Shown here: piece after piece, positions 8,947 through 57,361 of the stretch | Position numbering within the stretch: position 1 is the stretch's first letter | Layout of the letters: every line of letters starts with the position of its first letter | NCBI GenBank assembly: GCA_949358305.1 | Contig: OX442314.1 | Location: 2,297,087-2,361,086, forward strand | Direction: 5' to 3' | Length of the DNA: 64,000 nucleotides | From: Strigamia acuminata | Lineage: Eukaryota > Arthropoda > Chilopoda > Geophilomorpha > Linotaeniidae | Made by a program: the position numbers and the translations under genes | Notes under the pieces: model-generated | The model's database searches: none | Seen by the model: the letters and a program-made list of their open reading frames with translations, nothing else | Told to the model about the DNA's origin: nothing

Positions 8947-8985
8947 ACATTTTAAATTCCGAATTCATCTAACAAATCTACTAAA

Positions 8986-10716
8986 ATGGTGAGAAATTTC
9001 GAGTTAAAGAACAAAGCATTCCGAGCGGCCATGATGGTCACAGAAACACTCCTGACCACGATCACCACTGCGCTGAATGGGAGAGCTGCAATTCCGCAAG
9101 CCACAATTGAATTATGGCTGCAACAGCTCGAACAAAAGCAGAAACGAGTGCAACTAACGTTTGACGCCACACTGGATCAAGCAAGAAGCGACCAGGAGAT
9201 TGACGACACCGTGTTAGCACTCGACGCACTGGAGGACCGCTTGGCCGCATCAAAAGCCGATTTAGGCAGGTACACTCATGCGAATTACCCACCTAATTTA
9301 CCCCAAAATCCACGACCGAACGCGGACGCGCAACCGGCGGACATCGAGACGCTAGCGGCGGCTATTACCGCAGCAGTGACGGCAGCAACACCACGCGCAA
9401 CACCGACGAACGGTCAACCATTCATCAAACGTAAGCCACTTGAAATACCTAAGTTTGACGGACGTAAGCCAGAAGAATGGGGAGGGTTTTGGAAAACGTT
9501 TTCGATCCAAGTCGGCGACGACGAGCAACTGGGCGGAACAAATAAACTTTTATATTTAAGAAATTACCTGGTTGGAGAGGCGCTCGACGATATAAAAGCA
9601 CTCGAAATCACCGCAGGAAATTACACCGTCGCAATCGCACGTCTGCAGAAGAAATACGGCGATAAAATCGTACTCGAAAATAAATACCTGTCTAACCTCA
9701 TAAATTTGCCATCTGTTAGCAGCGAGCGAGATCGAATGGGTTTACAAAAACTCCACAGACACGTGGAAGTTAACATAGAAAATTTAGCCAACATTGACGT
9801 GCCTTTGGCAGAAATACAGCGGACCATTTTCCCCGTGCTGTCGTCGGCTGTTCCGCGCAGTATAATCATGGAATATGACAAAGACTGCGACGGAGAGAGG
9901 TTGATAGCAAGGTTGATGGACTGGTTGAGTGATCACATAGCTAAACATGCCAAATACGACATGCTAAAAACCCAATCGAAGCCAGAAACGTCTCACAACA
10001 AAACGTCGGACAACAATCCCCCCAACAAAGGACGATTTAGTCGAAAAGAAAAGGAACCTCGATCGGGATCGGCGTCGCAACTGTCAGTATTAATAATGAA
10101 ATGTCAATTTTGCGATTCCACAGAACACAATCGGAAAAGATGCCCGCTCACGATGGAGGAGAGACGAAAAAGACTGCAGAAAAAAGGGATTTGCATGAGA
10201 TGCTTGGGGAAAGTGCCCCACAAGACGGAAGAATGCAGAACTCGCATGAAATGCTACAACTGCGAGGGAACACATCACACCCACGTGTGCGACACACCAA
10301 AAGCTACAGAAGCCAGCGAGGGAATCACCCACACCAACGCAGTCGTCACCACCTGTCCACCCAAGTCCGAATTTTTGATGGTGCAGATGGTGAAGATGGC
10401 CGGACCAACGCACTCAACTTTGGGAGTGTGCTATATCGATGGGGGAGCCCAACGCACCTTCATACGCTCTGAGCTGACTAAAAAACTGAATTTGAGAATT
10501 TTAGGCACTGAAACGATAAATTTGGCCGTGTTTGGGCAAGAGCCCAGATCAGAAGTTCGCAACAGAGTCGAGTTAGTCCTCAGTCCCGCCAACTCGAAGT
10601 CGCCAGCAGTTACAATTGAAGCCATCGAAACTGTCCACGTCACGTCCACGCCCGAAGAACAGCCAAACAAGCAACTAAAAGCAGAATTACAGTACAACGA
10701 AGAAAAATCCCACTGA
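8986..10716 (+). CDS. BEL gag-protease polyprotein (576 aa)
   Basis: Structural and protease part of the element. The first 110 aa are helical and charged, followed by an alanine/proline linker and the capsid-like region (from IPKFDGRKPEEWGGFWKTF, about residue 154). A zinc-knuckle cluster starts at about residue 373 (CQFCDSTEHNRKRC) and includes CYNCEGTHHTHVC near 425. The aspartic protease motif is YIDGGAQRTFI with the catalytic Asp near 485; the usual Ser after Asp is Gly, which may lower activity. The ATG at 8986 is the first after the PBS, in context AAAATGG. The frame ends at 10716 at or next to the deletion that removed the RT core. Confidence 0.92.
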   Translation: MVRNFELKNKAFRAAMMVTETLLTTITTALNGRAAIPQATIELWLQQLEQKQKRVQLTFDATLDQARSDQEIDDTVLALDALEDRLAASKADLGRYTHANYPPNLPQNPRPNADAQPADIETLAAAITAAVTAATPRATPTNGQPFIKRKPLEIPKFDGRKPEEWGGFWKTFSIQVGDDEQLGGTNKLLYLRNYLVGEALDDIKALEITAGNYTVAIARLQKKYGDKIVLENKYLSNLINLPSVSSERDRMGLQKLHRHVEVNIENLANIDVPLAEIQRTIFPVLSSAVPRSIIMEYDKDCDGERLIARLMDWLSDHIAKHAKYDMLKTQSKPETSHNKTSDNNPPNKGRFSRKEKEPRSGSASQLSVLIMKCQFCDSTEHNRKRCPLTMEERRKRLQKKGICMRCLGKVPHKTEECRTRMKCYNCEGTHHTHVCDTPKATEASEGITHTNAVVTTCPPKSEFLMVQMVKMAGPTHSTLGVCYIDGGAQRTFIRSELTKKLNLRILGTETINLAVFGQEPRSEVRNRVELVLSPANSKSPAVTIEAIETVHVTSTPEEQPNKQLKAELQYNEEKSH

Positions 10717-13123
10717 CTCTCAGCTGATGTCAGATGAAGAGACCAAAGTGTTGGGAGTCAAGTGGAACCCAAACTCGGACGAATTGAGTCTGGCGGTCGA
10801 AGAAAATTGCCCATCTTGCAAGAAAACAACAAAAAGGGAAGTAATAAAAATAACGTCTCAAATATTCGACCCTTTAGGATTTGCCACGCCATTCACGGTG
10901 ACTGCACGAATGTTCTTCCAATCCCTGTGGCTCAAGAACCTGCCATGGGACGACGAATTAGGCAGCGAATTGCTCACTGACTGGAAAAAATGGACCAACC
11001 AAATTCCCACGTTAAGACACATTCAAGTTCCACGATGGTTAGGATTGGACGAATTTGACTAGTGTGAAGTGCACATATTTTGCGACGCGAGTCCAAAGGC
11101 ATACGGGGCGGTGGCCTATATACAGAACAGTACTGGTGATTTGATTGAAACGAATTTTATAATTTCAAAGTGTCGTGTAGCTCCTGTCAAACCACTAACT
11201 CTACCAAAACTCGAACTCATGGGAGCATTGATTGCTGTGCGCCTCTCCGACCAAATTAAGGAGTTGGTGACGCCAGGTGAAATGTTTTTTTGGACAGATT
11301 CGCAAATATGCCTCCACTGGATTGGAAACACGTCCAAACGACCACCAACCTTCGTACATAATCGAGTTTTGGAGATAAGGGAGAAGTCAAGGATTGAAGA
11401 GTGGAAACACGTGCCTGGAATTAAAAATCCAGCTGACCGCCTAACGAGGGGAATAGACGCAGAAGCAATGATTTCCGACTGACTTTGGTGGCAAGGGCCA
11501 GATTGGCTGCGTGGAAGCCGCCAGATTTGGCCAAAGGTGCTGCCAGATACAGTCGAGGAGCGAGACGATGAGGAAACTGCAGAAATTCACGTCGAGGCGG
11601 TGCAGACAACAACAATTAATATTTTTCCGTTTGACAGGTTTGGATCGCTGTCAAAGGCAATCCGAACACTGGCATGGGTTTTCAGGTTTGCAGACAATGC
11701 TGGGAAACGACAAACAGATGCCAGCCAACGCAATCGAGGTCCATTGAGGGCAGCCGAGCTGAAACGTGCGAAACTCAGCTTAATTGGAATCGCACAAACA
11801 GAAGTTTATGGCCGAGAAATCGAAAGGATGAAAGATGGCAAGCCAGTTCATGGAGAATCGAAGCTGCGAGACCTGAATCCACGACTAAACGAAATGGGAC
11901 TGATTGAGCTGCGGAATAGACTGCATGAATCGCGAGACTTGCCCACCACAACACAACCTTTGATTTTGCCCCCTAAACACAAACTGACTGAACTAATTTT
12001 GCAATTCTCACATTTACAGGTCCTCCATTGCGGACTGACATCCACGCTATCCAAATTTCGGGAAAACTACTGGACTCCATCCGCAAGGAGGACCTTGAAG
12101 ACCATGTTGGATCGTTGCGTCGTCTGCAAAAGGATCAACGGACGATTGATGCGGGAAGTGCCAGGCGCCCTCCAAGCCGACAGGACGTCAAAAACCCAAC
12201 CTTTTGTGGTCACCGGAGTCGACTTCGCGAGACCAATAATAGTGAAGGGACGGAAAACTAAAGCGTACGTAACTGTATTTACATGTGCAACGATTCGAGC
12301 CGTCCACTTGGAATTGGTGCCCTCGCTAGCAACAACAGACTTTTTGGGGGCGTTCGAGCGTTTTATTGGTCGCCGAGGGCTCCCGAAGATGATGTATAGC
12401 GACAACGGGACTACATTCCACCGCGCCCACAAAGAACTCGCCTCACTCTTAAACCACACGAAGGACGAGACGTTTCGAAATTACTTGGCGCAAAAGGGCA
12501 TCGATTGGAAGTTCATTGTCGAAAACGGACCGTGGTGGGGCGGGTTCTGGGAGAGGATGGTGCAAACGGTCAAGAGATGTTTAAGGAAGGCTATCGGCTC
12601 GGCGCACTTGAACTTCTATCAACTCGGAACTTTTCTCGTGCAAACCGAAGCAGTCATAAATCGCAGACCGATCACCTACGTGTATGACAACCCAAATGAA
12701 ATTGAGCCACTTACGCCCGCGCACTTTTTGACCGGCGTGATGTTGACTCACCTACCTGACTCGGGAGCAACAGACAGCATCGAACCGACTCAGAAGGAGT
12801 TTGTTCGACAATGGCGCTACCAGCAACGCGTATTACTCTCGTTCTGGAATCGTTGGTCTCGGGAGTATTTGACAGATTTAAAAATTCAAACGGGCAAACC
12901 AGGCGTGCAAGAACTCCAGTTGAACGACATCGTCATAATCGAAGAGCCATTTAAACCACGCCTAAAATGGAAAATGGGTCGAGTGGTCGAAGTTAAGCGA
13001 GGTCGGGATAACAAAATCAGATCGTGTGAAATGGTGCTCGCCAGTGGAGAAAAGATGCGTCGACCGATACAACGTCTTGTGCGTTTGGAAGTGGAGCCAG
13101 TCAACCCCCGCCCGGCAGTGTGA
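10717..13123 (+). pseudogene. BEL pol remnant: RT C-terminus, RNase H, integrase
   Basis: Frame 2 continues from about 10700 to 13123 with two nonsense codons, TAG at 11060-11062 and TGA at 11480-11482. It starts at the end of the RT (KVLGVKWN, then FDPLGFATPFTV), goes into RNase H (HIFCDASPKAYGAVAYIQ, 11072 on) and the integrase: zinc-binding H...CVVC (12015-12130), catalytic GVDFARP, YSDNGTTF and the Glu of WWGGFWERMV. The RT palm with YxDD is absent, so at least a kilobase was deleted between protease and RT C-terminus, in a different frame from gag. Stop TGA lies in the first bases of the 3' LTR. Confidence 0.92.
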
Positions 13124-18211: not shown

Positions 18212-18830
18212 ATGGATCTGGAAAATAAAAACACTATTTCAATTTTAACAAGCAAAAATCTTGTACAAGTTGAAGAGATAAAGTGAGAAGACTTTGTTTT
18301 ACGAAGGTTTTGTTTTACACAATTAAAAATATTTATCTTTACAGATCTTTAAAAGCGAATCTAAAGAGGAACTTCAAGGATATAGCAACTTCAAGGATAT
18401 AGCAAACTTACGGCTCCAAAACAAGTGTTTGTTAGAACAGATCAAGTTCTTGGAAGAGGAGATGATAAAACTGAAAGAAGACAGTACTTTAACAGATGAA
18501 AAGATGGATGTAGAATACGTAGAAATGCGCGAAAGCATTACAAATTTTGCGTCTGAAACTGTGACTAATTCTGCGAAAAAGACTCAGCCTCGATCTCAGA
18601 AACGTTGGGGAAAACGTGAAGAATTGAATCTTTATGCTGGCGTCAGGTTATTTGGAGATAAAAAATGGACATTGATTTTGACTAAATTCAAGTTCAACGA
18701 TCGTGAATCGTATGAAATAAGTGGAGGAGATTAAAAGACAATTTTATGAAACTATCTCAAGTAAAAAACTTTATCTGCAAAGCCATAAGATTCATAAGAA
18801 ATAAGTATTTTCAATGATATTTTCAATAAT
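18212..18830 (+). pseudogene. SANT/Myb (TRF-like) coiled-coil protein, two exons, broken
   Basis: Exon 1 starts at ATG 18212 after a TTTCAG acceptor and ends at donor 18283. Exon 2 begins at 18345. The protein would have an N-terminal coiled coil (LLEQIKFLEEEMIKLKED) and a C-terminal SANT/Myb domain: KRWGKREELNLYAGVRLFG, WTLILTKFKFN, then KWRRLKDNF in the next frame. That order, with a KFxFN turn and a third helix KWRRLK, resembles telomere-repeat-binding-factor Mybs. Two lesions break it: a 17-bp tandem duplication (18370-18386 and 18387-18403) shifts the frame in exon 2, and about one base is missing near 18718-18721 before the third helix. Confidence 0.65.
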
Positions 18831-25420: not shown

Positions 25421-26120
25421 GTTGATTTGTATCTCTTGAAACCGTGCATTGTTCTGCTGTAAATTCCGATGCTGACTGCAAAATTTTTGAAAATGTTCTC
25501 ATCCTAACAGCTGAAGATCAGTTGTTTGCCTGAACCTATAGTAATAGATTTTGCTACAATAACTCACATACATCTAAAGAGCCATGTGAATATGATGTAA
25601 TGGTATTAGTATCACATAATCTGATCGTGGGATCATCTTATAATGAATCTGTAGGCATGTCACTAAGTATTAAAAATAATTATTCCAAATTTTTTAAACA
25701 TGATTTTGGTTATTTCAAACTATTTGAACACTAGTGTTGTATTCAAAAGCAGATTACTAGAAAACTATGCATCCTACAGGGGTATTGTTTTGCTCAATCT
25801 AGAGCTAAATTATGTCTCTTTTAAGAATGTTTTTATTTATTTTAGTGAGAGCTTTCCAGCAATGCCAAAATGCCTTCTAACAATGATGTGCTCATGAAAA
25901 TTTGGATTATTCCATACTTTCTGAACTGACTGAAGTAGGCCATTTGAGTGTTTGTTGGTCTGGTTGACTTGAAACTGATCACACTTATTTAAATAAAGAA
26001 AATGTTACTACAAATGAAAGGAATTATATAATATGTCAGCTGACAATGAATTAAAGTAATAAGTGAAATATTAATCTCAACATTTTCGTACCACATCGAT
26101 AACTGCACTTAAAAGGAACA

Positions 26121-29100
26121 ATGGAGAGAGAGGATTCAAATCGACCAGTAGGCCGAATCCAACAAATGAGAAGACGAAAACTGCTTCAACTTGTTCGCAC
26201 TACTATGTCGAAGCAACAGAGTACTCTGGCATTCATCAAATGTTTGACAAATATCTCGGAGAAGAAACGAAATATCAAGATTTTACTTTGTGTGTTACTA
26301 ATTATCAATTTGGCAGCTTGTGTTTATCAAACAGTAGATCGGGTATTGTATTTCATGGACGAACCCACAGCAGTTGATGCACACATGATTGAAACAACGC
26401 ATGGTTCCTTTCCCTATTTGTATATATATCCAGCTACTAACCAAGAATTTAACAATTTCATTTACAACAAGACAAAAAAATCTGAATACAAAGATCAATG
26501 TGGATATGGTCGAATGGACCCACCACATTCAGGCTTTAATGTCAGTGATATTCTACAATATTCTACTTCACTTAGTTACATAACTGATGCCTACTTCAAA
26601 ACAGTAAATCTTTTTCATTTTTTCTCCATACCAAACGAGAAAAGTTTAATCGAATTTGGAAAATAATATATTTGCAGCCTAAAATGCGCATTAACCTTAC
26701 AATTGCAAATTATGAGACTGTGGATTTGATCACTACACAAGTTTCCAGTCGTAAGTCAACAATAATTCCTGTATTCTTTATTTTTACAAGTTCCTTTTTC
26801 CCTTAGCAATTTCGTTTCCATATGGGAATGCTGCTCATAAGATGGTCATAAATCTTAATTTTCCCAAGCAATGTGAATATCTTCAGGTGAGCATTTAATT
26901 TCATCGACAATTTATTTTGCATTTCTCACAGCCACAAAGTTAGACACCACATTTTTACAAAATGAGCTGTCAAAATTGTGAAATATTTCGTAATAAAGTT
27001 TAATAATCATTCTTGAAACCATTACATTCGATTTCAAGGTGTTAATAGATCCATCAGCAGTCGTTTATCATTTATATGCGGAAGAGAAAAATACCTTAGA
27101 AATGAAAGATGGCAAAAATACAGTTGGAATTAGGGTGCAAGAAGTAAGGATTAAATTAATAATTAATTCAAACAGAAAAGTGAATTATTTTCTAGCCATT
27201 AATCAGAAGCATTTCTTCAATCTATCAGTTTTATTTAAGCACAACTGCTAATTATTTCGGGGGTAAATTAAACGCCCCCCAAAAAGACTTGGATTCCCCC
27301 CAAATAAAACTGATTGGCCCCCCTCTTTTTCAACCCCCCAAGAAAAACTTACCGTATTTGCCCCCCTTTATTTAGGAACTTCCCCCCAAATTTTTATTTT
27401 GCCAAATGGCTTATGAACGTCTCAAAAACGTGACGTGCATGCTTATCTGAGTATATAAGCCACCATATTATCATTGTTTTGTATTCTTGTTCGACAATGA
27501 CATCCCAAGTTGTTGTTTTCGCAAACTCAGACTCGGAATCGGATTCCGATGCACCCCGAAAGGCGCAGGAAGTTGGGATTGAAATGGGCGAAAATTAAAC
27601 AATTTAATAATCTCGATGAGGCATCTACGGTTCTTAAAGGAGAGCAAATGTGGGAAAGGCGCCGAAACTCGACTACACAGGAGAAAAAATCTTTTAGGAC
27701 TGTCGGTTTTCGCGGGAATGTGATGCGAAGAGATACCTTTTTCTGAAAGCCGGTAATGATTCAGTCGAATTATACAACACAACAGACACCCGTACTCACG
27801 AAGAACGACTACAGCGAGGCATTTAGGCCGTCTAAGGGAAAAAAAGCACTGATGGCCCAATAATTTATTCTTGTTTTGGGGGTTAAATGATTTTTTTCTG
27901 TTTTTTTTTTTCGGGGGGGAAATCAGCTTTTTCGGGGGGCAAAAGAAGTTTTTTTGGGGAGAGGAGCAGGTTTTTCGGTTTAGTTTTATTTGGGGGGAAA
28001 CCTAGTTTTATTCGGGAGGAAAAGGGGATATTTCTGGGGGGCCATTAAATCATATCCAATTATTTCTTATTGAGTAATGAGGGCTGTCAGTAATTTACGT
28101 AATGCTGTGTTTTGGTTGACTAGAATTAACAGCAACTCTTAACATCAAATCTCTGTAACAAATTCCCTCCCTTCTTAGAAAATAAGATAAGGGTCCCATT
28201 TATTGGTCCACTAAATTTCCTTGGATTTCCACTGAAAAAAAACTAATTCTCCCACTTACTGAAATTTCCACTAACGCTCCTTTTTTGTTCCACCAAATTT
28301 TTACACTAAAAAAAAACTAAATCTTCCACTAAAATCAAATTAGGGAAGAAAAAACTAATATTACCACTACTACTTCTATGTTTTTTTTTTTGTGCTGCAG
28401 CTGTGCGAATGTTTGACTAACGTCGGCGGCGGCCACATATCGCCGGGCGAAGGCTGGTTCGTCCGGGGCGCATTCGTCGCGTGTCTCCCCGTTCGTCGAC
28501 TCCCGCCGGTCCTAGTCACGTGTCGGGACCCAGTCCCAACAAGACCTCGGGGCCCCTCGCCGGCCGCAACATCTTCATGGACAACTATGGCCACGCGAAT
28601 GTCCACGACAACACACCACCCTCGTTTGTTGACTCCTGCCGCTTTATAGTGGGGAAAGTCAGTAGTGGGAAATTTAGTTTTTTTAGTGTATAAATTTAGT
28701 GGAATCAAAAAGGAGCGTTAGTGGAAATTTCAGTAAGTGGGAGAATTATTTTTTTTTAGTGGAAATCCAAGGAATTTTAGTGGACCATAATAAACAGAAC
28801 CGCCCTAAGACGCTACGTAATTTAGAGAAGGCCCTATAATAATACAAGAATTTGAAACTTGTATTTTAGTATCACTATTTCAACACTAAGAAAAATCCAT
28901 GTAATAATAATTTACATGATTGCATACGGCCATGTCTCGTCAAACAAATGAAATGCAAGTAAGTCTTTTAATTCGACTCAATAACAGAAATCAATAAAAA
29001 AATATTTATTTCCGTGCGTAAATCACACATCAACACATTTCAAAAATATTTTTTATCTGACTGTTAACAACTTAACTTTAATAAAAGTTGTCACATTAGA

Positions 29101-32100
29101 TATCCATTTTATGAAGCGAAAAATCTACCGGAATGCAATGACAAAGACACTTTGATTCAGTGCAAACAAATAGAAGGATTTATCAGAAATAAGGATACAG
29201 CATCACAGTGTGGATGTGGTAATGTATGTGATGAGATAAGGTTCAGCCAAACATTCGACAGAACACCTGATGATGGAAATAAAATAGAAATTTATGTTGT
29301 CAATACTTTCGTTCGAACATTAGTCGAACGCTTTTCTTATGACATCATCAATTTGCTATGCGACATTGGAGGAAACATCGGCCTCTATTTCGGCATGTCT
29401 TGCTTGACACTGGTCGAAATATTCATTCACTTATGCAAAATATGCATCGCCAAACCAGCAACAGCAAATTCCAAGTTGACAGATAAAATTGAAATGACAC
29501 TTGAAAAAATACAGAATAGCCGAAAAACAACTTTCGTTAAAAAAGTGATCAAAATCACAACATCACTATTCTTTGGTTTGATATCAGTCTACTACATTTA
29601 CCATTTGATTGATTCTTATTTTCAATTTCCACTCTTGAAAACTGTTAAACTCATTAGAGATAAAAAAATTCATCTTTCACTCATTATTGCATGTACAGAT
29701 AGTACAATCATATCAGCTGCTAAAAAGGACTTAGCCCAAAAACTGAACACAACTGATTGTGATCATTTACAACTGTTGGATTTACTCCATCCACTATCTG
29801 AATTCGCAAATCAAACACTGCAATTATGGAATGTCTCGTCTCGTCTTGATTTATACGACAAAGATCGGAGAAATGCACTCAAGGTAAAAAAAAAATCAGA
29901 ATATTAAATTATCAATTCAAAAGTGTAAAAATTTAACAAACTTGTAGATTGGGGCAACAGCAGAGGAAATTGCATTTTATTTTGCCAACATATCATTAAA
30001 ACCAACAGTGTATGGAATGTGTACTGCATTTAATAAAGGTAAAAAAAAAAGTCTCTTTTAATTCTCACTAAAATATTTGTACACAGGTGACCGGCCGTTT
30101 GTTCGAAAGGGAACCTTTATATTGATTGTCGATCAGCCCAGTTTCCACTGTCCTCTTAAACGAGAAGTCAGATAGAAGTTCATCCTTCGCACTGTTAATT
30201 GCAGCAGTTACTAATTTGACTTTATGTATTCCAGCACTTCATTTTGCCAACAAATCAATTTTTTCATCCGAAATATCGTTTTGATGTATCCAGCAAATTA
30301 AGTGCTTTTGTCAACTTCGCCCCTCAAACGGTGAATCCAAAAAATGATTAATCCACTATACTCTTGCTCACTATAAGGTTGCCCTTTCTCCCATTGGCCG
30401 AGCCTCACTACTTCTAACTGTGCAGTATTTTTTTTTTCATTTTTGTTATTATTATAATGATTAAAATGCTATAATTTTAATTTTATTTTATAGTAAAATG
30501 TTTTTATTTCAACAAACATGTTTGTTTTAGTTTATTGGTTGCTATGTCTGGAAAGTTCACAATGTCTGTACATGGACTGCAGTTCTGGTGTTTTGGTCTA
30601 TTTTTTTGTATCACTGCACGAGTGAAATGGCCCGGCCAATGGGAGAAAGGCCAACCTTATAGTGAGCCAGTAGTATAGCATTGGAAATAGAGTGATTAGA
30701 CTTCAAAAATGGCACCCAATTTAATCTGCATCAGTTGTCATTTAAATCTCTTGATTAAAAAAATATTTAAAAAAAAAATGTTTAACGAGTGCTTTTGAAT
30801 GCGCCAACCGTAATTTGACGCATTTATCAAATTTGAGAAATTGTCGCCACTTATGAGAAATGATCGACGGTTTTGAGAAAATCAAATTTCTCTTTGATTT
30901 GGGGCCCCAATTTGTTCAATTTGTTCAAATTTCCACTAAGTTGATTAATCTTTCCAGCTTATTCGATTAAATACCCCGAGAAGTCCTTGCAGACCAAATG
31001 ATGAAGTTTTAAGATGTGAAGAAGACTGCTTCGAAAAGAAACTTAAGCAACAATCTTTCAATTGCAGGTAACTTGTAATTAATCCACTAATTACCTTGCA
31101 TCCCATATTGCAATTTACAAATCATACACAGATTGTTTGAGTAGGGGGTTTCATTAAATGAGTGATTATTTGATTACTTTGATTATTGCAATAATCATAA
31201 TCACTCAATTATTGAGGGCCAAACAAAAAATCTGATTATGTGATTATTGGTATGTGTGATTATGTGAAGGTCACATGACTTTCTGTGTTGGTCACATGAC
31301 TTTCTGTGTCATGGCTGCCACCTAAACAAAAACAAAAATGCCCAAGGTCAGTAGGAAAAAGCAGTTTTTGAAGATGTTTGAGGTTTGGTGGATATTATAT
31401 TATCATATATATTAGCACTTGGTTATGGGCAATGAGCTGCTCATCGTTTTCAAAATTATCTGCTGTGCTAACGGTAAATGTAAACACGGCAACCCGAAAA
31501 CGTGCATGGGCAACCTGAAAAGGTGATGCGACCAACCGTAACATGTAGATTGTTCCGATGGGTGGAATTGTTTAAATTTTAACCTAAATACGTAGCAATT
31601 GTTTAAAAAAAGTTGCTACAAGTAACAATTGCAACTCCCTAACTTGTTTAATGTGTTCAGTTTAACCTAAACTGAGCACACTTTGTTAAATTATGACCTT
31701 GTGTAGCTGAAGCGGGTGTGGCGCCGCCATGTTGGTTTGAGTTGAGAGAGCACTTATAATCGGCCCAAGTCAGCAGAAAATCATGGTTTGGGATGATTAC
31801 TTGATTACTTGCTTATTTGATGAAATGATTATTCTCAGGATTGGTTGAATCCAGTCACATGACACATCAAATAATCAACTAATCAAAGTAATCAAAGTAA
31901 TCAAATAATCACTCATTTAATGAAACCCCCTAGTATATACAGGGTGTATCAGAATTCATGTTACACAGAAATAAGGGGTATAGAGGGGGACCAGGAGATC
32001 ACATTTCCACTAATCAAAAATTCCAAAAAAAATTTCCCACTTTGTTACAACCCCAATAACAATGGAAGATTTCAAATATCGCGTCATGCATATCGCATAA

Positions 32101-32768
32101 ACTTGTGCATAAACAACAAAAACAGCAAAAATGTTGTACTGTATACAAGTATAGCACCATTTATTAAAGTTTCTGAAGAATTTTTAAACTAAAAAAATAT
32201 TATTTATGTTTAAAGCTTTCAAATCATTGAAAAAAATGATCATAACATAAGCATAACACAAACAATTCATTGTCATTTTTAACAATAAATTTAATTTGCC
32301 ACATTTGATCTACCTTGCTACGCTCGTACACCCAAATAGTTCAAATGTATGCCTAATTTGTAATAACTGGAAAAAATCATGTGCCCTTGCACACCGTATA
32401 TTTCCATTGAATATTGTTGTATTACTAGACTTCCATCCATGGATAAGAGTAAATTCCCCCTTTGCCTATCTCAAAAGACGGCTAAAACAACTTACGAGAC
32501 ATATTTGAAAACTCTGATGACGACATACCCCAGGGAAGATTGTTCCTGCAAAGCATCTTGTCAAGAAACCATCTTCAATCCTTCAATCACCAGCAGCATA
32601 GAGGACTGGAAAGTCTTCTCAAAATCTATTTGGTATAGCTTTGAAAATAACATCAGAGAAATACTTGAAGAACAGCAAGAGATTACCATTATAAAGTTAT
32701 TTTGTCAGATTGGATCTATTATTGGTATTCTCACTGGTTTCTCCTTATTTTCTCTTCTTCAATTTTGA
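26121..32768 (+). CDS. Tandem double DEG/ENaC (pickpocket-like) channel, 776 aa
   Basis: Exons by splice signals and frame: 26121-26603, 26678-26750, 26807-26886, 27039-27143, 28870-28958, 29100-29883, 29948-30038, 30087-30166, 30235-30330, 30958-31067, 32429-32768. Unit 1: TM1 about 52-72, Cys-rich region (NPCNNNLHDCIRPC, CGCGNVC), TM2 about 361-392 with the GMS filter at 375-377. Unit 2 starts in the same uninterrupted exon: TM1 about 427-450, GMCTAFN at 561-567, Cys-rich CRPNDEVLRCEEDC and CSCKASC, TM2 about 750-776 with GFS at 767-769. DEG/ENaC proteins are trimeric plasma-membrane cation channels with one unit (two TMs, about 400-600 aa) per chain. Unit 1 lacks the GxCxxFN motif. The five internal intron positions and phases of unit 1 recur in unit 2, pointing to gene duplication and fusion. 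All joins are inferred from sequence. Confidence 0.85.
27259..28057. mobile_element. C/G-tract MITE with 9-bp target duplication
   Basis: Flanked by AATTATTTC at 27250-27258 and 28058-28066. The left arm has C6 blocks spaced about 20-30 bp apart in A/T-rich sequence, the right arm the corresponding G6 blocks, so the arms are an imperfect inverted repeat (ends GGGGGTAAATTAAACGCCCC against GGATATGATTTAATGGCCCC). The 9-bp duplication fits Mutator-like elements. Sits in intron 4 of the channel gene. The centre (27400-27860) has a TATATAAG and short ORFs on both strands, no transposase. Confidence 0.75.
28079..28836. mobile_element. DNA transposon with long arms and a GC-rich core
   Basis: Ends AGGGCTGTCAGTAATTTACG and, inverted, TACGTAATTTAGAGAAGGCC; flanking TAAT on both sides. 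Inner inverted arms (28203-28290 and 28690-28786) carry GGTCCACTAAA, CTTGGATTTCCACT and CTCCCACTTACTGAAATTTC. The core 28391-28665 is CpG-rich, unlike everything around it, starts after a perfect polypyrimidine-CTGCAG acceptor, and is open in two plus frames. Also in intron 4 of the channel gene. Confidence 0.7.
30361..30673. mobile_element. MITE in intron 9 of the channel gene
   Basis: Inverted ends CTCACTATAAGGTTGCCC and, opposite, GGCCAACCTTATAGTGAG, extending inward to CTCCCATTGGCCG. TATA borders both ends (30357-30360 and 30674-30677), consistent with TA or TATA duplication. No coding sequence. Confidence 0.8.
31144..31930. mobile_element. GGGGGTTTCATT-TIR MITE, copy 1
   Basis: TA-flanked element with inverted ends GGGGGTTTCATTAAATGAGT and the continuing TGATTATTTGATTACTTTGATTA word. 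It lies in intron 10 of the channel gene. A relative with the same 13-bp tip but GCAATTTT words inside is at 37656-39240. Directly beyond its right end 31938 starts CAGGGTGTATCAGAATTCAT, a lone mariner-type terminus. Confidence 0.88.
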
Positions 32769-32795: not shown

Positions 32796-32801
32796 AATAA
32801 A
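32796..32801 (+). terminator. Polyadenylation signal of the channel gene
   Basis: AATAAA 28 nt after the stop codon at 32766-32768, followed by AGCACTGC. Position is suitable for a short 3' UTR. Confidence 0.55.
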
Positions 32802-33982: not shown

Positions 33983-34089
33983 CAGGGGCGGATCTAGCTT
34001 TTCGGGGGCCCGGGGCTTGAGGTTTTTTCGGGGCCCCTTTCTCAAAATTTTTAATAGCGACCTTTCTTCTTTTTTCTTTTTTTTAGCAA

Positions 34090-34150
<61 letters not shown>

Positions 34151-34329: not shown

Positions 34330-34690
34330 TATTCTGTCACAGTTTGAAATATTCTGTCACATTTTTAAATATTCTGTCACTTTTAAATATTCTGTCACAT
34401 TTTTAAATATTCTGTCATATTTTTAAATATTCTGTCACATTTTTAAATATTCTATCACATTTTTAAATATTCTGTCACATTTTTAAATATTCTGTCACAT
34501 TTTTAAATATCCTGTCACATTTTTAAATATTCTGTCACATTTTAAAATATTCTCTCGCATTTTGAAATATTCTGTCACATTTTAAAATATTCTCTCGCAT
34601 TTTGAAATAATCTTTCAGATTTAGAAATATTCTGTCACATTTTGAAATTTTCTGTCACATTTGGAAATATTCTGTCACATTTTGAAATAG
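34330..34690. repeat. 20-bp tandem repeat, about 17 copies
   Basis: Unit ATTCTGTCACATTTTTAAAT, shifting to a TTTGAAAT variant on the right. The array ends exactly where the truncated MITE (TTTCATTAATTAA) begins. The same repeat occurs at 39421-39545. Confidence 0.95.
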
Positions 34691-47381: not shown

Positions 47382-47578
47382 ACACAAATTTATTATGTGA
47401 AATATGGACTGTTTTTTGGCTGAACAATTGCATATTGTGAAGAAAGGTTGGAAATCTGAAGTTTTAATGCAGTTTTAAATGTTCCATGAGAATTAGGCCC
47501 AGAATTGCCTGAGTGATAAGCCTGTGCAACATTAAGCCCTGGACTGATTAGTTGATTTTAAGTGCTATTTCTGAGGAA

Positions 47579-50500
47579 ATGATGGCAGATCAATTTGTAA
47601 TTCCAGTTGAGAAGTTGAATGGCAGAAACTATGGTGCATGGAAATTTAGAGTGGCAATTCTACTGAGATCCAAACACAAGTGGGATCCAACTGCAGCACC
47701 TGTGATGCCTATTAAATTGATAACTGAAGATGAGAAAACTTTCAATACCAGATTGGATGAATGGCAGGTTAAAGATGTGGAAGTGCTGAATACAATTTTA
47801 TCCACAATAGATGCTACTCAAATGAAATATGTGATGAATGTTGTTACTGCAGCAGAAGCATGGGAGAAATTGCAAGTCCAGAACCAAGGTGTCTTAGCAG
47901 AATTAAAAGTTCAATTAAAAACTGACTTGGGAAGAATTCAGATGAAACCTAGAGAGACAATTCTGGAATACATTGGGCGTGCCACAGCAGTAGCTCAGGA
48001 ACTCCAATCATTGGGAATAGTGACTGAAGAACCAGAACTTTGCTCACACATCTTGAAAGGATTAACTGCTGATTATATTAATGTTGTACGCAGCTGTGAT
48101 GTACTGGGAGTGGCAGCAATGACAATTCAAGTTTTGCAACGTGCCTTATTGGCTGAGGAAGCAAGAAAGCCACAACAGACAACTCCAAAGCTGGAGAGTG
48201 CCAATTGGGTACGAGGTGCAACCTCCTATCAACGAGGCAGAGGTGGCAGACCAGCCAGAGGTCGAACCCAACTCAAATGTTGGAATTGTGGGATTCCAGG
48301 CCATAGACAAGTGGATTGTCGCCGCCCACCCCAGCAGAACCAAGACACTCAGCCATCTACATCTGTCAATCGTGGTTTTCCTCCCCGGTCAAGACCTTGG
48401 GTTCCCCGAGGACGAGGATCATCTGGACCGTCCACATCCAAGCGAGTGACAGATGTGGAAGATCAAACACCACAGTTCGCTCTTGTTGCAACGGACAGTG
48501 ACCCTGCTTATGTGGACAGGGAGAACGAACTTTTAATAGACCAAGAACAATTTGACCCTTACATATGGTATCTGGATTCAGGTGCAACTTCACATATGAG
48601 TGGAGACAGGAGTTTATTTACAACATTGGATGACTCATTTGTCAAGATGGTTTCATTGGCTGATGGCAGAGAGATCAAAGCATCAGGAACTGGTGTAATT
48701 ATGCTAAATATTTGGTTTGGTGACCAAGCCAGAGTACTGAAGTTGGAAGACACCTATTATGTGCCTGAATTGAGTGGTAACCTGTTATCAATAAGCAGAA
48801 TGACTAATTTGGGCTATAAAGTCGCATTTACTGCCCGTGGCTGTACAGTTTCTACAATTGACAATGTACAAGTGTTCCAAGCTTCATCCCATCGGGGATT
48901 GTTCAAATTACAAGCAAGAAGCCCCAATGCACCCACAATGGAAGACAAAGCAGTAGTGATGGCTATTCAATCACAACCTCCATTGACGGGATCAGAGTTG
49001 TGGCACCGCAGGTTGGCACACATAAACAACCGTGCTTTAAAGGATTTAGTAAAGAAAAATATGGTGACAGGGATGACAATTGATAAAGTTCATAAATGGA
49101 CATTGTGTGAGGAATGTGTGACAGCAAAGCACACCAGAAGCCCATTTTTGCCTGCACCATCAATTAGAGCCAGTGGGCCGCTACAGATGCTGCATGTAGA
49201 CCTGTGTGGTCCCATGCCACACCCTTCAATTGGAAGATCAGAGTATATCTTCATGATTGTAGATGACTATTCAAGGTGTTTGTTTCCTCGTTTTTTGGTG
49301 TCAAAGGCTGAGACTTCGGGTGTCTTTGAACAATTTATAGACACACATCAAAATAAGTTTGAAGCCAAAGTCAAGATGGTTCGCTCAGACAACGGAACTG
49401 AATTTTTAAATCAACACTTTAGGGCAATTTTGGACACAAGGGGAATTCAACATCAAACTACCGTCATCTATAGTCCATCCCAAAATGGAGTCTCTGAAAG
49501 GGCAAATAGATCCCTCCTTGACAAGACAAAGACTCTATTGAATGATTCAAAGTTGCCATACAAGTTTTGGGCTGAAGCTGCGGCATGTGCCGCCTACGCA
49601 ATGAATCGCTCACCAACACGTAGGTTTCCGGGCGAGACACCCTATGAAAGACTTACTGGAAGAAAACCAGATATATCTAATATGAGGATTTTTGGCACTA
49701 TTGCTTACGCATGGGTTCCAAAGCAACATAGGAATAAGTTGGATTCTCGTGCTAAACCGGTCATTTTCATGGGCTATCCCTTGTTGAAGCCGGGCTGGAA
49801 GTTTTATGACCAAGATACTAATAATATCATTGTGGCACGAGATGTTAAGTTCAATGAGTCCAGATTGGGAATGGAATTATTATCAGGACAGAATGTAAAA
49901 CCTGATCATGAACCAGAAATGGTGTACATACCTGAGGGAGATGTAAGCTCCCAACCCCCAGTTGTTTTTCAACAACCCACCAGACCGACACCGGGTCCAG
50001 AACGGAGATATCCTTCAAGGATACGACGTCAGGTCCAGCCTTATCAGGCAATTGATTGGCGACAGCATCGCACACAACGTTGGGAGAACCAACGAGCACA
50101 TGTGGTGAACACCAACCCACAGGTTGAAGTACCGATACATGAACCAAAGACATTTGCTGAGGCAGTGACATCTGACCAGGCGAGCCAATGGGTAAAGGCT
50201 ATGGAAGAGGAAATAGCCTCCCACACCCAACAAAATACTTGGACTTTGGTTCCAAGACCACAGGATGCAAAAGTAATTGGCTCTCGCTGGGTATACAAGT
50301 TTAAGAAGAAATATAAAGCCCGTCTAGTTGTTCAAGGCTACAATGTCCACAAGGGCATTGACTATTCAGAGTCTTTTTCCCCTGTGGCTCGATTGGCTAC
50401 CATCAGAATTATCTTAGCCATTGCTGCAATGTTTGGCTTTATAGTCAAGCACTACGATGTCAAATCAGCATACCTCCATGCGAAATTGAAGGAGGTAGTC

Positions 50501-51688
50501 TACATGGAGCAACCTCAAGGCTTTATTCAACCTGGGCGAGAAAACGATGTTTGGCTCCTAAATAAGGCAGTTTATGGTTTACCTCAGGCAGGCCGCGCTT
50601 GGCATGAAGCCCTGAACAAGGTACTTGCACAAGCGGGATTTAAGAAGTTGGTAGTTGATCCATGCGTTCATCTGTGGAAAAATGGTACCGACATTATAAT
50701 AATGGGCACTTATGTCGACGATTTGATGCCGGCAACTAACGCCACACGGATGCTCGATCAGATAATGGGGAAAGTGATGAAGCAAGTTAATCTGATCGAC
50801 CTTGGAGAAGTCACAGAGATTTTGAGCATCAGGATTAGGCGACAGACCCACCCGTATGCACTTTTGTTGGACCAATCCAAGTATATATTTGAGGTCTTGC
50901 TTAAATTCAACATGATGAATGCAAAGACAAGTAGAGCACCCATGGACCCATCCCAGAAACTGGAGGACCCTAATTATCCGCTCGGATCACCATTAATTAA
51001 CGAGCCCTATCGAGAATTAATTGGCTCTTTATCCTACTTGGCTCAAGCTACTCGACCAGATATCGCTTATGCGGTATCCTATCTATCGCAGTGGTTGCAG
51101 AATCCGCATGACGCTCACTGGACAGCAGCAAAGAAGATCCTTCGCTATTTAAAAGGAACGGCTGATTTGTCGTTAATTTATTCTCACGGATTTGGATTAT
51201 TGCGAGGATATGCCGATGCATCTTGGAACAGTGCCTCGGTTGATGCAAAGAGCTATGCAGGATTTATCACCATGCTGGGAAATTCAACCATCACTTGGCA
51301 ATCAAAGAAGCAAAAGCTAATTGCCTTATCAACATGTGAATCGGAATTTGTAGCAATGGTAGAGTTAGCGAAAGAACTGAAATGGATAACATCATTGCTG
51401 GAACAGCTTGAAATGACCAAATTAATTCAAAGACCGATTCAAATCTTTTCTGATAATCAAGCCGCCATCGCCCTCACTAAGAACCCCCAGTACCATGGGC
51501 GCACAAAACACTTTCACAGGAGAGTGTTATTTTTACGTGAGGATGTTCAAGATGGAACTTATGATATCAACTATATGTCTACAGAAGAGATGCCTGCAGA
51601 TATTATGACTAAGGCAACAGGTGGTTTGAAATTGATCACCACAAAGGATTTTATTAATTTGCGACTATGTGATTCACCGTTACGATGA
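47579..51688 (+). CDS. Copia gag-pol polyprotein (1369 aa)
   Basis: Start chosen at ATG 47579 (a second ATG follows at 47582). Domains: gag from KLNGRNYGAWKFR, zinc knuckle CWNCGIPGHRQVDC about residue 234, protease YLDSGATSHM about 333, GAG-pre-integrase LWHRRLAHINN, integrase triad D541, D604, E640 (D-D-35-E), RT from WVKAMEEEIASHTQQNTW about 870, catalytic YVDD 1045-1048, RNase H GYADASWNS about 1210, C-terminus to ADIMTKATGG. All major motifs are intact. Between GSRWVYKFKKK and YKARLVVQGY about ten residues usually present in copia RT are missing. The gene needs no frameshift; gag and pol are in one frame, as in copia. Confidence 0.97.
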   Translation: MMADQFVIPVEKLNGRNYGAWKFRVAILLRSKHKWDPTAAPVMPIKLITEDEKTFNTRLDEWQVKDVEVLNTILSTIDATQMKYVMNVVTAAEAWEKLQVQNQGVLAELKVQLKTDLGRIQMKPRETILEYIGRATAVAQELQSLGIVTEEPELCSHILKGLTADYINVVRSCDVLGVAAMTIQVLQRALLAEEARKPQQTTPKLESANWVRGATSYQRGRGGRPARGRTQLKCWNCGIPGHRQVDCRRPPQQNQDTQPSTSVNRGFPPRSRPWVPRGRGSSGPSTSKRVTDVEDQTPQFALVATDSDPAYVDRENELLIDQEQFDPYIWYLDSGATSHMSGDRSLFTTLDDSFVKMVSLADGREIKASGTGVIMLNIWFGDQARVLKLEDTYYVPELSGNLLSISRMTNLGYKVAFTARGCTVSTIDNVQVFQASSHRGLFKLQARSPNAPTMEDKAVVMAIQSQPPLTGSELWHRRLAHINNRALKDLVKKNMVTGMTIDKVHKWTLCEECVTAKHTRSPFLPAPSIRASGPLQMLHVDLCGPMPHPSIGRSEYIFMIVDDYSRCLFPRFLVSKAETSGVFEQFIDTHQNKFEAKVKMVRSDNGTEFLNQHFRAILDTRGIQHQTTVIYSPSQNGVSERANRSLLDKTKTLLNDSKLPYKFWAEAAACAAYAMNRSPTRRFPGETPYERLTGRKPDISNMRIFGTIAYAWVPKQHRNKLDSRAKPVIFMGYPLLKPGWKFYDQDTNNIIVARDVKFNESRLGMELLSGQNVKPDHEPEMVYIPEGDVSSQPPVVFQQPTRPTPGPERRYPSRIRRQVQPYQAIDWRQHRTQRWENQRAHVVNTNPQVEVPIHEPKTFAEAVTSDQASQWVKAMEEEIASHTQQNTWTLVPRPQDAKVIGSRWVYKFKKKYKARLVVQGYNVHKGIDYSESFSPVARLATIRIILAIAAMFGFIVKHYDVKSAYLHAKLKEVVYMEQPQGFIQPGRENDVWLLNKAVYGLPQAGRAWHEALNKVLAQAGFKKLVVDPCVHLWKNGTDIIIMGTYVDDLMPATNATRMLDQIMGKVMKQVNLIDLGEVTEILSIRIRRQTHPYALLLDQSKYIFEVLLKFNMMNAKTSRAPMDPSQKLEDPNYPLGSPLINEPYRELIGSLSYLAQATRPDIAYAVSYLSQWLQNPHDAHWTAAKKILRYLKGTADLSLIYSHGFGLLRGYADASWNSASVDAKSYAGFITMLGNSTITWQSKKQKLIALSTCESEFVAMVELAKELKWITSLLEQLEMTKLIQRPIQIFSDNQAAIALTKNPQYHGRTKHFHRRVLFLREDVQDGTYDINYMSTEEMPADIMTKATGGLKLITTKDFINLRLCDSPLR

Positions 51689-56370: not shown

Positions 56371-56422
56371 AAGTTTATTTCCGCGTCATCGGGAGTCATC
56401 TGCTAAAAACTGAAAGTCAAAA

Positions 56423-57361
56423 ATGGAAAGAAAAGTTCAAAAATACAGTTGCAATTTGTGCGACTATTCGTGTTCATATTATTGTCTTTTGAAACAACAC
56501 ATGCTCAAACACACTGGTGAAAAGCCTTACAAATGTCAAACATGTTCACTTTCCTTTCGACTTAAACAATGCATGATTGTCCATATGAGAATTCATACTG
56601 GAGAAAAGACATTCGAGTGTCATTTGTGTGATTATTCTTGCAATCAAAGTGGGCATTTACGAAGTCATCTATTAACCCATTCAGGAGAAAAACCATTCAA
56701 GTGCCATTTGTGTGCTTATTCTTGCAATCAAAGTGGGAATTTAAGAAGTCATCTATTAACCCATACTGGAGAAAAACCATTCTAGTGCCATTTATGTGAT
56801 TATTCCTGCAGTCAAAGTGGACATCTAAAAAGCCACATTGCAACCCACACTGGGGAAAAACCATTCAAGTGCCATTTGTGTGATTATTCCTGTATTGGAA
56901 GTGGGAATTTAAGAAAACATTTATTAACTCATACTGGAGAAAAACCATTCGAGTGCCATTTGTGTGATTATTGCAGCAGTGAAAGTGGACATCTAAAAAG
57001 ACATTTATTAACCCATACTGGAGAAAAACCATTCAAGTGCCATTTGTGTGATTATTCCTGTACTACAAGTAGTTATTTAAAAAAGCATTTGTTAACCCAT
57101 AGTGGAGAAAAACCATTCAATTGCCATTTGTGTGATTATTCCTGTATTCAAAGTGGGGATTTAAGAAGACATTTATTAACCCATACTGGAGAAAAACCAT
57201 TCAAGTGCCATTTGTGTGCTTATTCTTGCAATCGGAGTGGGAATTTAAACAGTCACCTATTAACCCATTCGGGAGAAAAACCTTTCAATTGCCATTTGTG
57301 TGCTTTTTCTAGTAATCGAAATGATACTTTTAAAAGACATTTAACAAAGCATATAAAGTGA
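56423..57361 (+). CDS. C2H2 zinc-finger protein, 11 fingers, one in-frame TAG
   Basis: ATG 56423 (context AAAAATGGAA) follows an acceptor at 56367. Eleven classical fingers with HTGEKPF linkers: CNLCDYSC...H at the start, then a series of near-identical CHLCDYSC-x-SGxLxxHLLTH fingers, ending CHLCAFSSNRNDTFKRHLTK and a stop at 57359-57361. Such proteins bind DNA as nuclear regulators; nothing here gives the target. A TAG at 56783-56785 sits where all other linkers have AAG or GAG, after finger 4, and the frame continues for seven more fingers. It is either a nonsense mutation giving a four-finger protein, or a polymorphism. The finger helices differ at contact positions (QSGHLRS, TTSSYLKK, ESGHLKR). 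Confidence 0.85.

What the first reader, a model, noticed from the sequence alone, without database searches (positions are those of the whole stretch)
26121..32768. One gene encoding two full DEG/ENaC channel subunits in tandem
Exon 6 (29100-29883) is one open frame that runs from the Cys-rich end and TM2 of a first channel unit (GMS filter) straight into the TM1 and extracellular start of a second unit, whose own TM2 (GFS filter) ends the protein. Each unit is complete in topology. DEG/ENaC channels are known as trimers of single-unit chains; a natural concatemer would have four TMs and raises the question of 2+1 or six-unit assemblies. I am not aware of a described natural double-unit DEG/ENaC protein.
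Basis: partly seen in the sequence, partly recalled or inferred. Interest (0 to 1): 0.87.

Follow-up and report, generated by a model that had tools for sequence, protein, structure and literature searches.

The report
Natural two-in-one sodium-channel subunit gene
An animal gene appears to encode, in one unbroken protein, two subunits of a sodium-channel family whose members normally carry one subunit per chain, so nature may have built the kind of linked channel that laboratories make artificially.

Summary
Eleven GT-AG exons (26121-32768, +) give a stop-free 776-aa protein. Each half alone matches Pfam ASC (DEG/ENaC): E 1.6e-14 and 1.1e-12. Both are nearest, among solved structures, to the centipede channels BRTNaC1 and PDPNaC1. 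The units share five intron positions and phases (0,1,0,0,2; matched by 1 of 2,000,000 random placements), which supports the model and the units' homology. Exon 6 runs from TM2 of unit 1 through a basic 37-residue linker into TM1 of unit 2. No AATAAA lies between 29278 and 30032; one lies just behind the final stop. Two separate genes would have 60 bp between TM2 and the next possible start.

Unit 2 is not a canonical pore unit: it has Q, S and Q where unit 1 keeps the gate Asp and Gly and the selectivity Glu (E18'), it ends one residue later, and its TM1 is only weakly hydrophobic. Best reading: a natural covalent heterodimer of a DEG/ENaC channel; its assembly is untested. No transcript, organism or relative was obtained; the genome search failed in all 12 tries.

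The parts
26121..26603 (+). exon 1: start, N-terminus, TM1 and first part of the extracellular domain of unit 1 (aa 1-161); splice phase 0 at its end
   Evidence: first ATG of the open frame that begins at 26103
26678..26750 (+). exon 2 (unit 1), ends in phase 1
26807..26886 (+). exon 3 (unit 1), ends in phase 0
27039..27143 (+). exon 4 (unit 1), ends in phase 0
28870..28958 (+). exon 5 (unit 1), start of the Cys-rich thumb, ends in phase 2
   Evidence: z 4.0 against the matching exon of unit 2
29100..29883 (+). exon 6, the fused exon: thumb and TM2 of unit 1, linker, TM1 and start of the extracellular domain of unit 2 (aa 277-538)
29434..29544 (+). linker between unit 1 TM2 and unit 2 TM1 (aa 389-425, 37 residues, 9 K+R, no N-glycosylation sequon); in-frame Met409 at 29494
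29948..30038 (+). exon 7 (unit 2), ends in phase 1
30087..30166 (+). exon 8 (unit 2), ends in phase 0; weak donor GTCAGA
30235..30330 (+). exon 9 (unit 2), ends in phase 0
30958..31067 (+). exon 10 (unit 2), thumb, ends in phase 2
32429..32768 (+). exon 11: end of thumb and TM2 of unit 2, stop TGA directly after position 19' of TM2
32796..32801 (+). AATAAA, likely polyadenylation signal of the whole gene, starting 28 bases after the last base of the stop codon

Best explanation
This is one animal gene, probably of an arthropod, whose single mRNA encodes two DEG/ENaC (ASC) subunits head to tail: cytoplasm, TM1, ectodomain 1, TM2, 37-residue cytoplasmic linker, TM1, ectodomain 2, shortened TM2. 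It came from two neighbouring copies of a six-coding-exon gene, the last exon of the first fused to the first exon of the second. The shared introns and the fused exon are shown; the single mRNA and the order of events are inferred. Most likely the chain places both units side by side in one trimeric pore, with the third position filled by another DEG/ENaC subunit or by one unit of a second chain (inferred). Unit 1 supplies canonical gate and selectivity residues (D365, G368, E383 = E18'). Unit 2 supplies neutral ones (Q757, S760, Q775) and ends at 19'. The chain would therefore fix an asymmetric pore of low sodium selectivity (inferred from ASIC1a concatemers with E18'Q). My estimate is about 0.8 for the one-chain protein and 0.4-0.5 for the shared-pore assembly.
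For: Complete 11-exon model with no stop. ASC in both halves. Unit 2 aligns with BRTNaC1 over residues 36-376 of 377, unit 1 with PDPNaC1 over 26-388 of 399. Five intron positions with identical phases, offsets from TM1 of 110/134/161/196/226 against 112/142/169/201/238 aa; null 1 of 2,000,000. Exons 5 and 6 of unit 1 each match their own counterpart best (z 4.0 and 8.5). Linker codon log-odds +0.18 per codon, reached by 0 of 116 open noncoding windows; both halves positive; the other two frames hold 2 and 5 stops. No AATAAA from 29279 to 30031; one at 32796. Linker 24% K+R, no sequon; 3 and 4 sequons in the two ectodomains. Engineered ASIC trimers joined by 19-aa linkers are functional (PMC10329638, passages). 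In ASIC1a concatemers one E18'Q of three lowers sodium selectivity; two collapse it (PMC5449180, section 8).
Against: No RNA evidence. A 37-codon linker would be open by chance with p about 0.11. The codon measure separates weakly: windows of this gene average +0.003 (sd 0.105) and open noncoding windows -0.107 (sd 0.137), so the linker lies above both and its score is not proof. Met409 could start unit 2 alone. Of the 9 GT sites in exon 6 that score above 0, 4 (29208, 29219, 29224, 29545) beat the weakest real donor, and 9 AG sites score above 0. AATAAA at 29278 in exon 6 before TM2, and ATTAAA at 29903 in intron 6, could give truncated products. Exons 1-4 show no similarity between the units (z 0, -0.3, -0.9, -0.2), and in none of them is the counterpart the best match. 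TM1 of unit 2 is weakly hydrophobic. One sequon (aa 44) lies in the stretch taken as cytoplasmic before TM1 of unit 1. PDPNaC1 has a Glu at the 18' place (alignment) and is still broadly permeable, so E18' need not set selectivity in this group. The engineered 1a-1a-1a concatemer gave about threefold smaller currents than free subunits. A base-level assembly error in the linker cannot be excluded without reads.
Confidence: 0.72

Rival explanations
1. Two separate channel genes that happen to abut: unit 1 ends by an alternative splice or a missed stop, and unit 2 starts at its own Met409 from an internal promoter.
For: In-frame Met409 at 29494 lies 17 codons before TM1. Moderate cryptic splice sites exist in exon 6. 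The units are strongly diverged. The open linker alone is not significant (p 0.108).
Against: Only 60 bp separate the end of TM2 (29433) from Met409, with no in-frame stop, no AATAAA after 29278 until 30032, and positive codon scores in both halves of the linker. Unit 1 would have no stop codon of its own in exon 6.
Confidence: 0.12
2. The chain is made (this overlaps with the best explanation), but unit 2 is a degenerate or regulatory appendage: unit 1 forms homotrimers, and three tethered unit 2 domains sit beside the pore or damp it.
For: Unit 2 has lost the gate Asp and Gly (Q757, S760) and E18' (Q775), its TM2 ends at 19' and its TM1 is weakly hydrophobic, while unit 1 keeps these residues.
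Against: Unit 2 keeps an open frame, eight cysteines in its thumb region (my assignment), the GxS motif and a nearly full-length match to BRTNaC1, which argues for a maintained fold. Q18' subunits still assemble and conduct in ASIC1a concatemers.
Confidence: 0.3
3. Four-unit ring: two chains of two units close a tetrameric channel.
For: A 2015 paper reports evidence for a homotetrameric state of ASIC1a at the cell surface (PMC4529235; title and start of abstract seen in the listing only). A two-unit chain would close an even-numbered ring without a left-over unit.
Against: The solved relatives are trimers: three chains per entry in the table, and PDPNaC1 is described as a homotrimer.
Confidence: 0.08
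4. A pseudogene or an assembly or sequencing error makes two units look joined.
For: The TGA at 32766-32768 cuts TM2 of unit 2 short; there are no reads to check; several splice sites are weak.
Against: No stop or frameshift in 776 codons. The four clearest inverted-repeat insertions at the locus lie in introns. The units differ too much for a false haplotype duplication (25% identity over the best-aligned 146 positions).
Confidence: 0.1

Closest known systems
[quoted passage not shown]
   Same: Best solved-structure relative of both units: E 1.8e-12 for unit 2 and 4.1e-08 for unit 1 (for unit 1 the significant stretch is only residues 242-385); three chains per entry in the tables.
   Different: One unit per chain; unit 2 here lacks the end of TM2 and its acidic residues.
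PDPNaC1, proton-dissociation-permeated sodium channel of the same centipede (PDB 9jf7; PMC12714832)
   Same: Aligns along nearly all of unit 1 (residues 26-388). Lacks the His-Gly motif, as both units here do. Gate residues Asp372 and Gly375 correspond to D365 and G368 of unit 1.
   Different: Homotrimer of single-unit chains.
Engineered ASIC concatemers (PMC10329638, passages; PMC5449180, passages and section 8)
   Same: Head-to-tail linked subunits on one chain; functional with 19-aa linkers.
   Different: Man-made, three units; here natural, two different units, 37 residues from TM2 to TM1.
Two-domain channels such as K2P potassium channels and two-pore channels (recalled, no call)
   Same: Natural duplication and fusion that halves the number of chains needed.
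   Different: Those pores have an even number of pore units, so two chains close the ring; a trimer cannot be closed by whole two-unit chains.

Membership tests
DEG/ENaC (ASC, PF00858) | ASC profile match above the curated cut-off | tested here: met
   54.3 and 48.2 bits for the two halves against 23.6
DEG/ENaC (ASC, PF00858) | TM1, large Cys-rich ectodomain, TM2, both ends inside | tested here: met
   Hydropathy finds TM1, TM2, TM1, TM2 at my threshold of 1.4, the second TM1 only just (peak 1.51); 11 and 12 ectodomain cysteines; K+R-rich linker without sequons. Unit 2 TM2 is shortened. Sidedness is inferred.
DEG/ENaC (ASC, PF00858) | G/SxS motif in TM2 | tested here: met
   GMS at aa 375-377 and GFS at aa 767-769
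DEG/ENaC (ASC, PF00858) | His-Gly motif before TM1 | tested here: not met
   No HG in aa 1-50 or 389-425 (sequence); also absent in the family member PDPNaC1, so its absence does not exclude membership
DEG/ENaC (ASC, PF00858) | one subunit per polypeptide | tested here: not met
   Two units in one predicted chain. This is a usual trait of the family rather than its definition.
DEG/ENaC (ASC, PF00858) | trimeric, amiloride-sensitive, sodium-preferring channel | not testable with these tools
   needs expression and recording
Centipede-type BRTNaC1/PDPNaC1 group | closest sequence similarity among solved structures | tested here: met
   Best hits for both units. Only solved structures were compared and no tree was built, so finer placement is open.
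Natural covalent concatemer | single transcript and single polypeptide in the animal | not testable with these tools
   Sequence evidence only

The most novel reading that the evidence does not exclude
A natural covalent heterodimer of a normally trimeric channel, kept because it enforces an asymmetric pore: one canonical unit linked to one whose gate Asp and selectivity Glu are both Gln. It would assemble as an obligate 2+1 heterotrimer with a separate third subunit, as a three-chain, six-unit complex, or even as a two-chain, four-unit ring.
Probability: 0.4. Interest if true: 0.8.

Novelty: new variant of a known kind. Interest (0 to 1): 0.62.

Why it matters
DEG/ENaC channels are solved as trimers, and how mixed subunits choose their partners and order is studied with artificial linked constructs. 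A natural two-unit chain would show that evolution fixed the order of two subunits in an odd-numbered ring, which two-unit chains cannot close by themselves. It would also provide a native channel with mixed Glu and Gln at the position that sets sodium selectivity in ASIC1a.

Tried and rejected
Protein database search with the full model: 2903 candidates, none at E <= 10. Since even ordinary DEG/ENaC proteins were not found, I take it that the database holds few or no animal proteins (inference), so this says nothing about rarity.

Viral and genome contig scans with exon 6: 14 and 42 stretches matched a pattern, none confirmed as a relative. The genome collection is prokaryotic, so a miss was expected.

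AlphaFold of the exon 6 stretch from a single sequence: mean pLDDT 34.9, not used.

Search for a missed last exon with the end of TM2: a TM2 signature, shaped on the two known sites, found only those two in the six frames of the window; it could miss others. GT sites in the last 80 bases of exon 11 score 0.3 or less.

Rfam: 0 matches at gathering thresholds. tRNAs: 0, with the tool's bacterial setting. Neither helped to name the organism.

Literature: I saw no natural double-unit DEG/ENaC in the listings (titles, starts of abstracts) (0 papers; 9; 7; 26 held, 20 listed; 1; 85 held, 40 listed; 3), nor in the passages shown from PMC12714832 and from the russet-mite genome paper PMC7738191. The spider-mite chemoreceptor paper that I wanted (10.1093/gbe/evw249, recalled) is not held. 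From memory only: public domain databases list proteins with two ASC domains, many of which may be gene-prediction fusions; I could not check this.

Change after rechecking: I lowered the one-chain estimate from 0.85 to 0.8 and the overall confidence from 0.75 to 0.72, because the codon control separates coding from noncoding only weakly and TM1 of unit 2 is only just hydrophobic.
Full report
What was checked. The stretch 26121-32768 was read and a spliced model built. Eleven exons, all with GT and AG at their ends, join in phase to 2331 nt and 776 aa with no stop before the TGA at 32766-32768. On an approximate splice matrix of my own (recalled values), the 10 real donors score 2.5 to 12.2 and the 10 real acceptors -2.2 to 11.3, so a few sites are weak.

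Two units. Pfam ASC matches the whole protein (E 8.9e-26, three stretches) and each half alone (1.6e-14 and 1.1e-12). For unit 1 the best stretch covers only profile positions 297-454 of 455; for unit 2 it covers 22-451. Hydropathy at a threshold of 1.4 shows four membrane stretches, with peaks 2.35, 1.87, 1.51 and 1.78; the second TM1 is the weak one. Among solved structures the best relatives of both halves are the centipede channels BRTNaC1 and PDPNaC1, ahead of ASICs. No further DEG/ENaC piece was found in the window: tblastn hits outside the locus had E of 2.5 or worse, and a TM2 signature shaped on the two known sites found only those.

Independent support for the model. The five introns inside unit 1 end exons in phases 0,1,0,0,2, and the five inside unit 2 do the same. 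Counted from the start of TM1 they lie at 110, 134, 161, 196 and 226 aa in unit 1 and at 112, 142, 169, 201 and 238 aa in unit 2. Of 2,000,000 random placements of five introns, 1 matched in phase and within 12 aa; position alone matched in a fraction of 0.0002255 (uniform placement, tolerance set after seeing the data). Exons 5 and 6 of unit 1 match exons 5 and 6 of unit 2 (z 4.0 and 8.5). Exons 1-4 show no similarity (z 0, -0.3, -0.9, -0.2), and for none of these four is the counterpart the best-scoring exon. BLAST gives 25% identity (37 of 146) over thumb and TM2. The units are thus old homologues with a shared gene structure, not a recent copy. The shared introns could be inherited from a wider family; they support the model and the homology, not the date of the fusion.

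The joint. TM2 of unit 1 ends at 29433, and the linker is aa 389-425 (29434-29544), before TM1 of unit 2. It has 9 K+R of 37 and no sequon, against 3 and 4 sequons in the two ectodomains, which fits a cytoplasmic linker; one sequon (aa 44) does lie in the stretch taken as cytoplasmic before the first TM1. An open run of 37 codons has p = 0.108 at the local stop rate, so openness alone is weak. The codon score of the linker is +0.18 bits per codon, reached by 0 of 116 open noncoding windows (overlapping, out of 851 windows). The control is modest, however: windows of the gene itself average +0.003 (sd 0.105) and open noncoding windows -0.107 (sd 0.137), so the linker is high against both and the measure separates weakly. 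The score holds in both halves (+0.20, +0.16), while the other frames hold 2 and 5 stops. AATAAA occurs in exon 6 only at 29278, before TM2, then not until 30032, and at 32796 behind the stop; an ATTAAA lies at 29903 in intron 6. Of 9 GT sites in exon 6 scoring above 0, 4 beat the weakest real donor, so hidden splicing cannot be excluded. If unit 2 began at Met409 (29494), 60 bp would separate TM2 of unit 1 from it, leaving little room for an ordinary gene end and promoter (inference).

Pore residues. Aligned without gaps to ASIC1 and to each other, unit 1 reads CDIGGNIGLYFGMSCLTLVE and unit 2 CQIGSIIGILTGFSLFSLLQF-stop. The gates of PDPNaC1 are Asp372 and Gly375, analogous to Asp433 and Gly436 of chicken ASIC1a (PMC12714832, section 9). 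Unit 1 keeps both (D365, G368); unit 2 has Q757 and S760 (mapping by alignment). In ASIC1a the Glu at 18' sets sodium selectivity: one E18'Q subunit of three lowers it, and two or three collapse it (PMC5449180, section 8). Unit 1 has E383 there and unit 2 has Q775, one residue before the end of the chain. Against a simple transfer of that rule: PDPNaC1 has a Glu at this place too (alignment) yet is broadly permeable to monovalent cations, and its authors link this to the missing His-Gly motif and to Gly378 (section 10). Neither unit here has a His-Gly motif.

Mechanism. Both ends of a DEG/ENaC unit are cytoplasmic (established for the family, recalled), so a TM2-to-TM1 linker is topologically simple. 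Engineered ASIC trimers with 19-aa linkers work, although the 1a-1a-1a construct gave about threefold smaller currents than free subunits (PMC10329638, passages). From this I infer that the two units can sit side by side in one pore. A trimer cannot be closed by whole two-unit chains without a left-over unit. So either a third subunit comes from another gene, or one unit of a second chain stays outside, or three chains form two linked trimers. A four-unit ring of two chains would also close; one paper reports evidence for ASIC1a tetramers (PMC4529235, title and start of abstract), against the trimeric solved relatives. Unit 2's changes favour an asymmetric, less selective pore or a regulatory role for unit 2. 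None of this was tested.

Limits. The organism is unknown; arthropod is an inference from the nearest solved relatives. No transcript, reads or relatives were available, and the genome search did not complete (12 tries). Novelty in print was tested only in one open-access library, through listings and passages.

Noticed in passing
window 27277-28016, 28204-28787, 30363-30670, 31142-31932: Four clear inverted-repeat (transposon-like, my reading) insertions, within introns 4, 9 and 10 of the channel gene; the last has perfect 44-bp arms. They are the clearest of 17 listed pairs; weaker pairs were not followed.
   Followed up: partly
window 8956-13123: BEL/Pao-type retrotransposon pieces in several open frames (DUF1759, Peptidase_A17, Integrase_H2C2, DUF5641).
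   Followed up: partly
window 47552-51688: Copia-type retrotransposon with one 1378-aa gag-pol open frame, possibly recently active (inference).
   Followed up: partly
window 56414-57361: C2H2 zinc-finger array in two adjacent open frames parted by one in-frame stop; Pfam was run on the second frame only.
   Followed up: no
window 34060-34150 and 34340-34500: Long T run, then a short tandem repeat of about 20 bp downstream of the channel gene (read by eye).
   Followed up: no
window 18327-18734: Open frame with a weak Myb-like domain below the curated cut-off (22.0 against 24.4 bits); possibly an exon of another gene.
   Followed up: no
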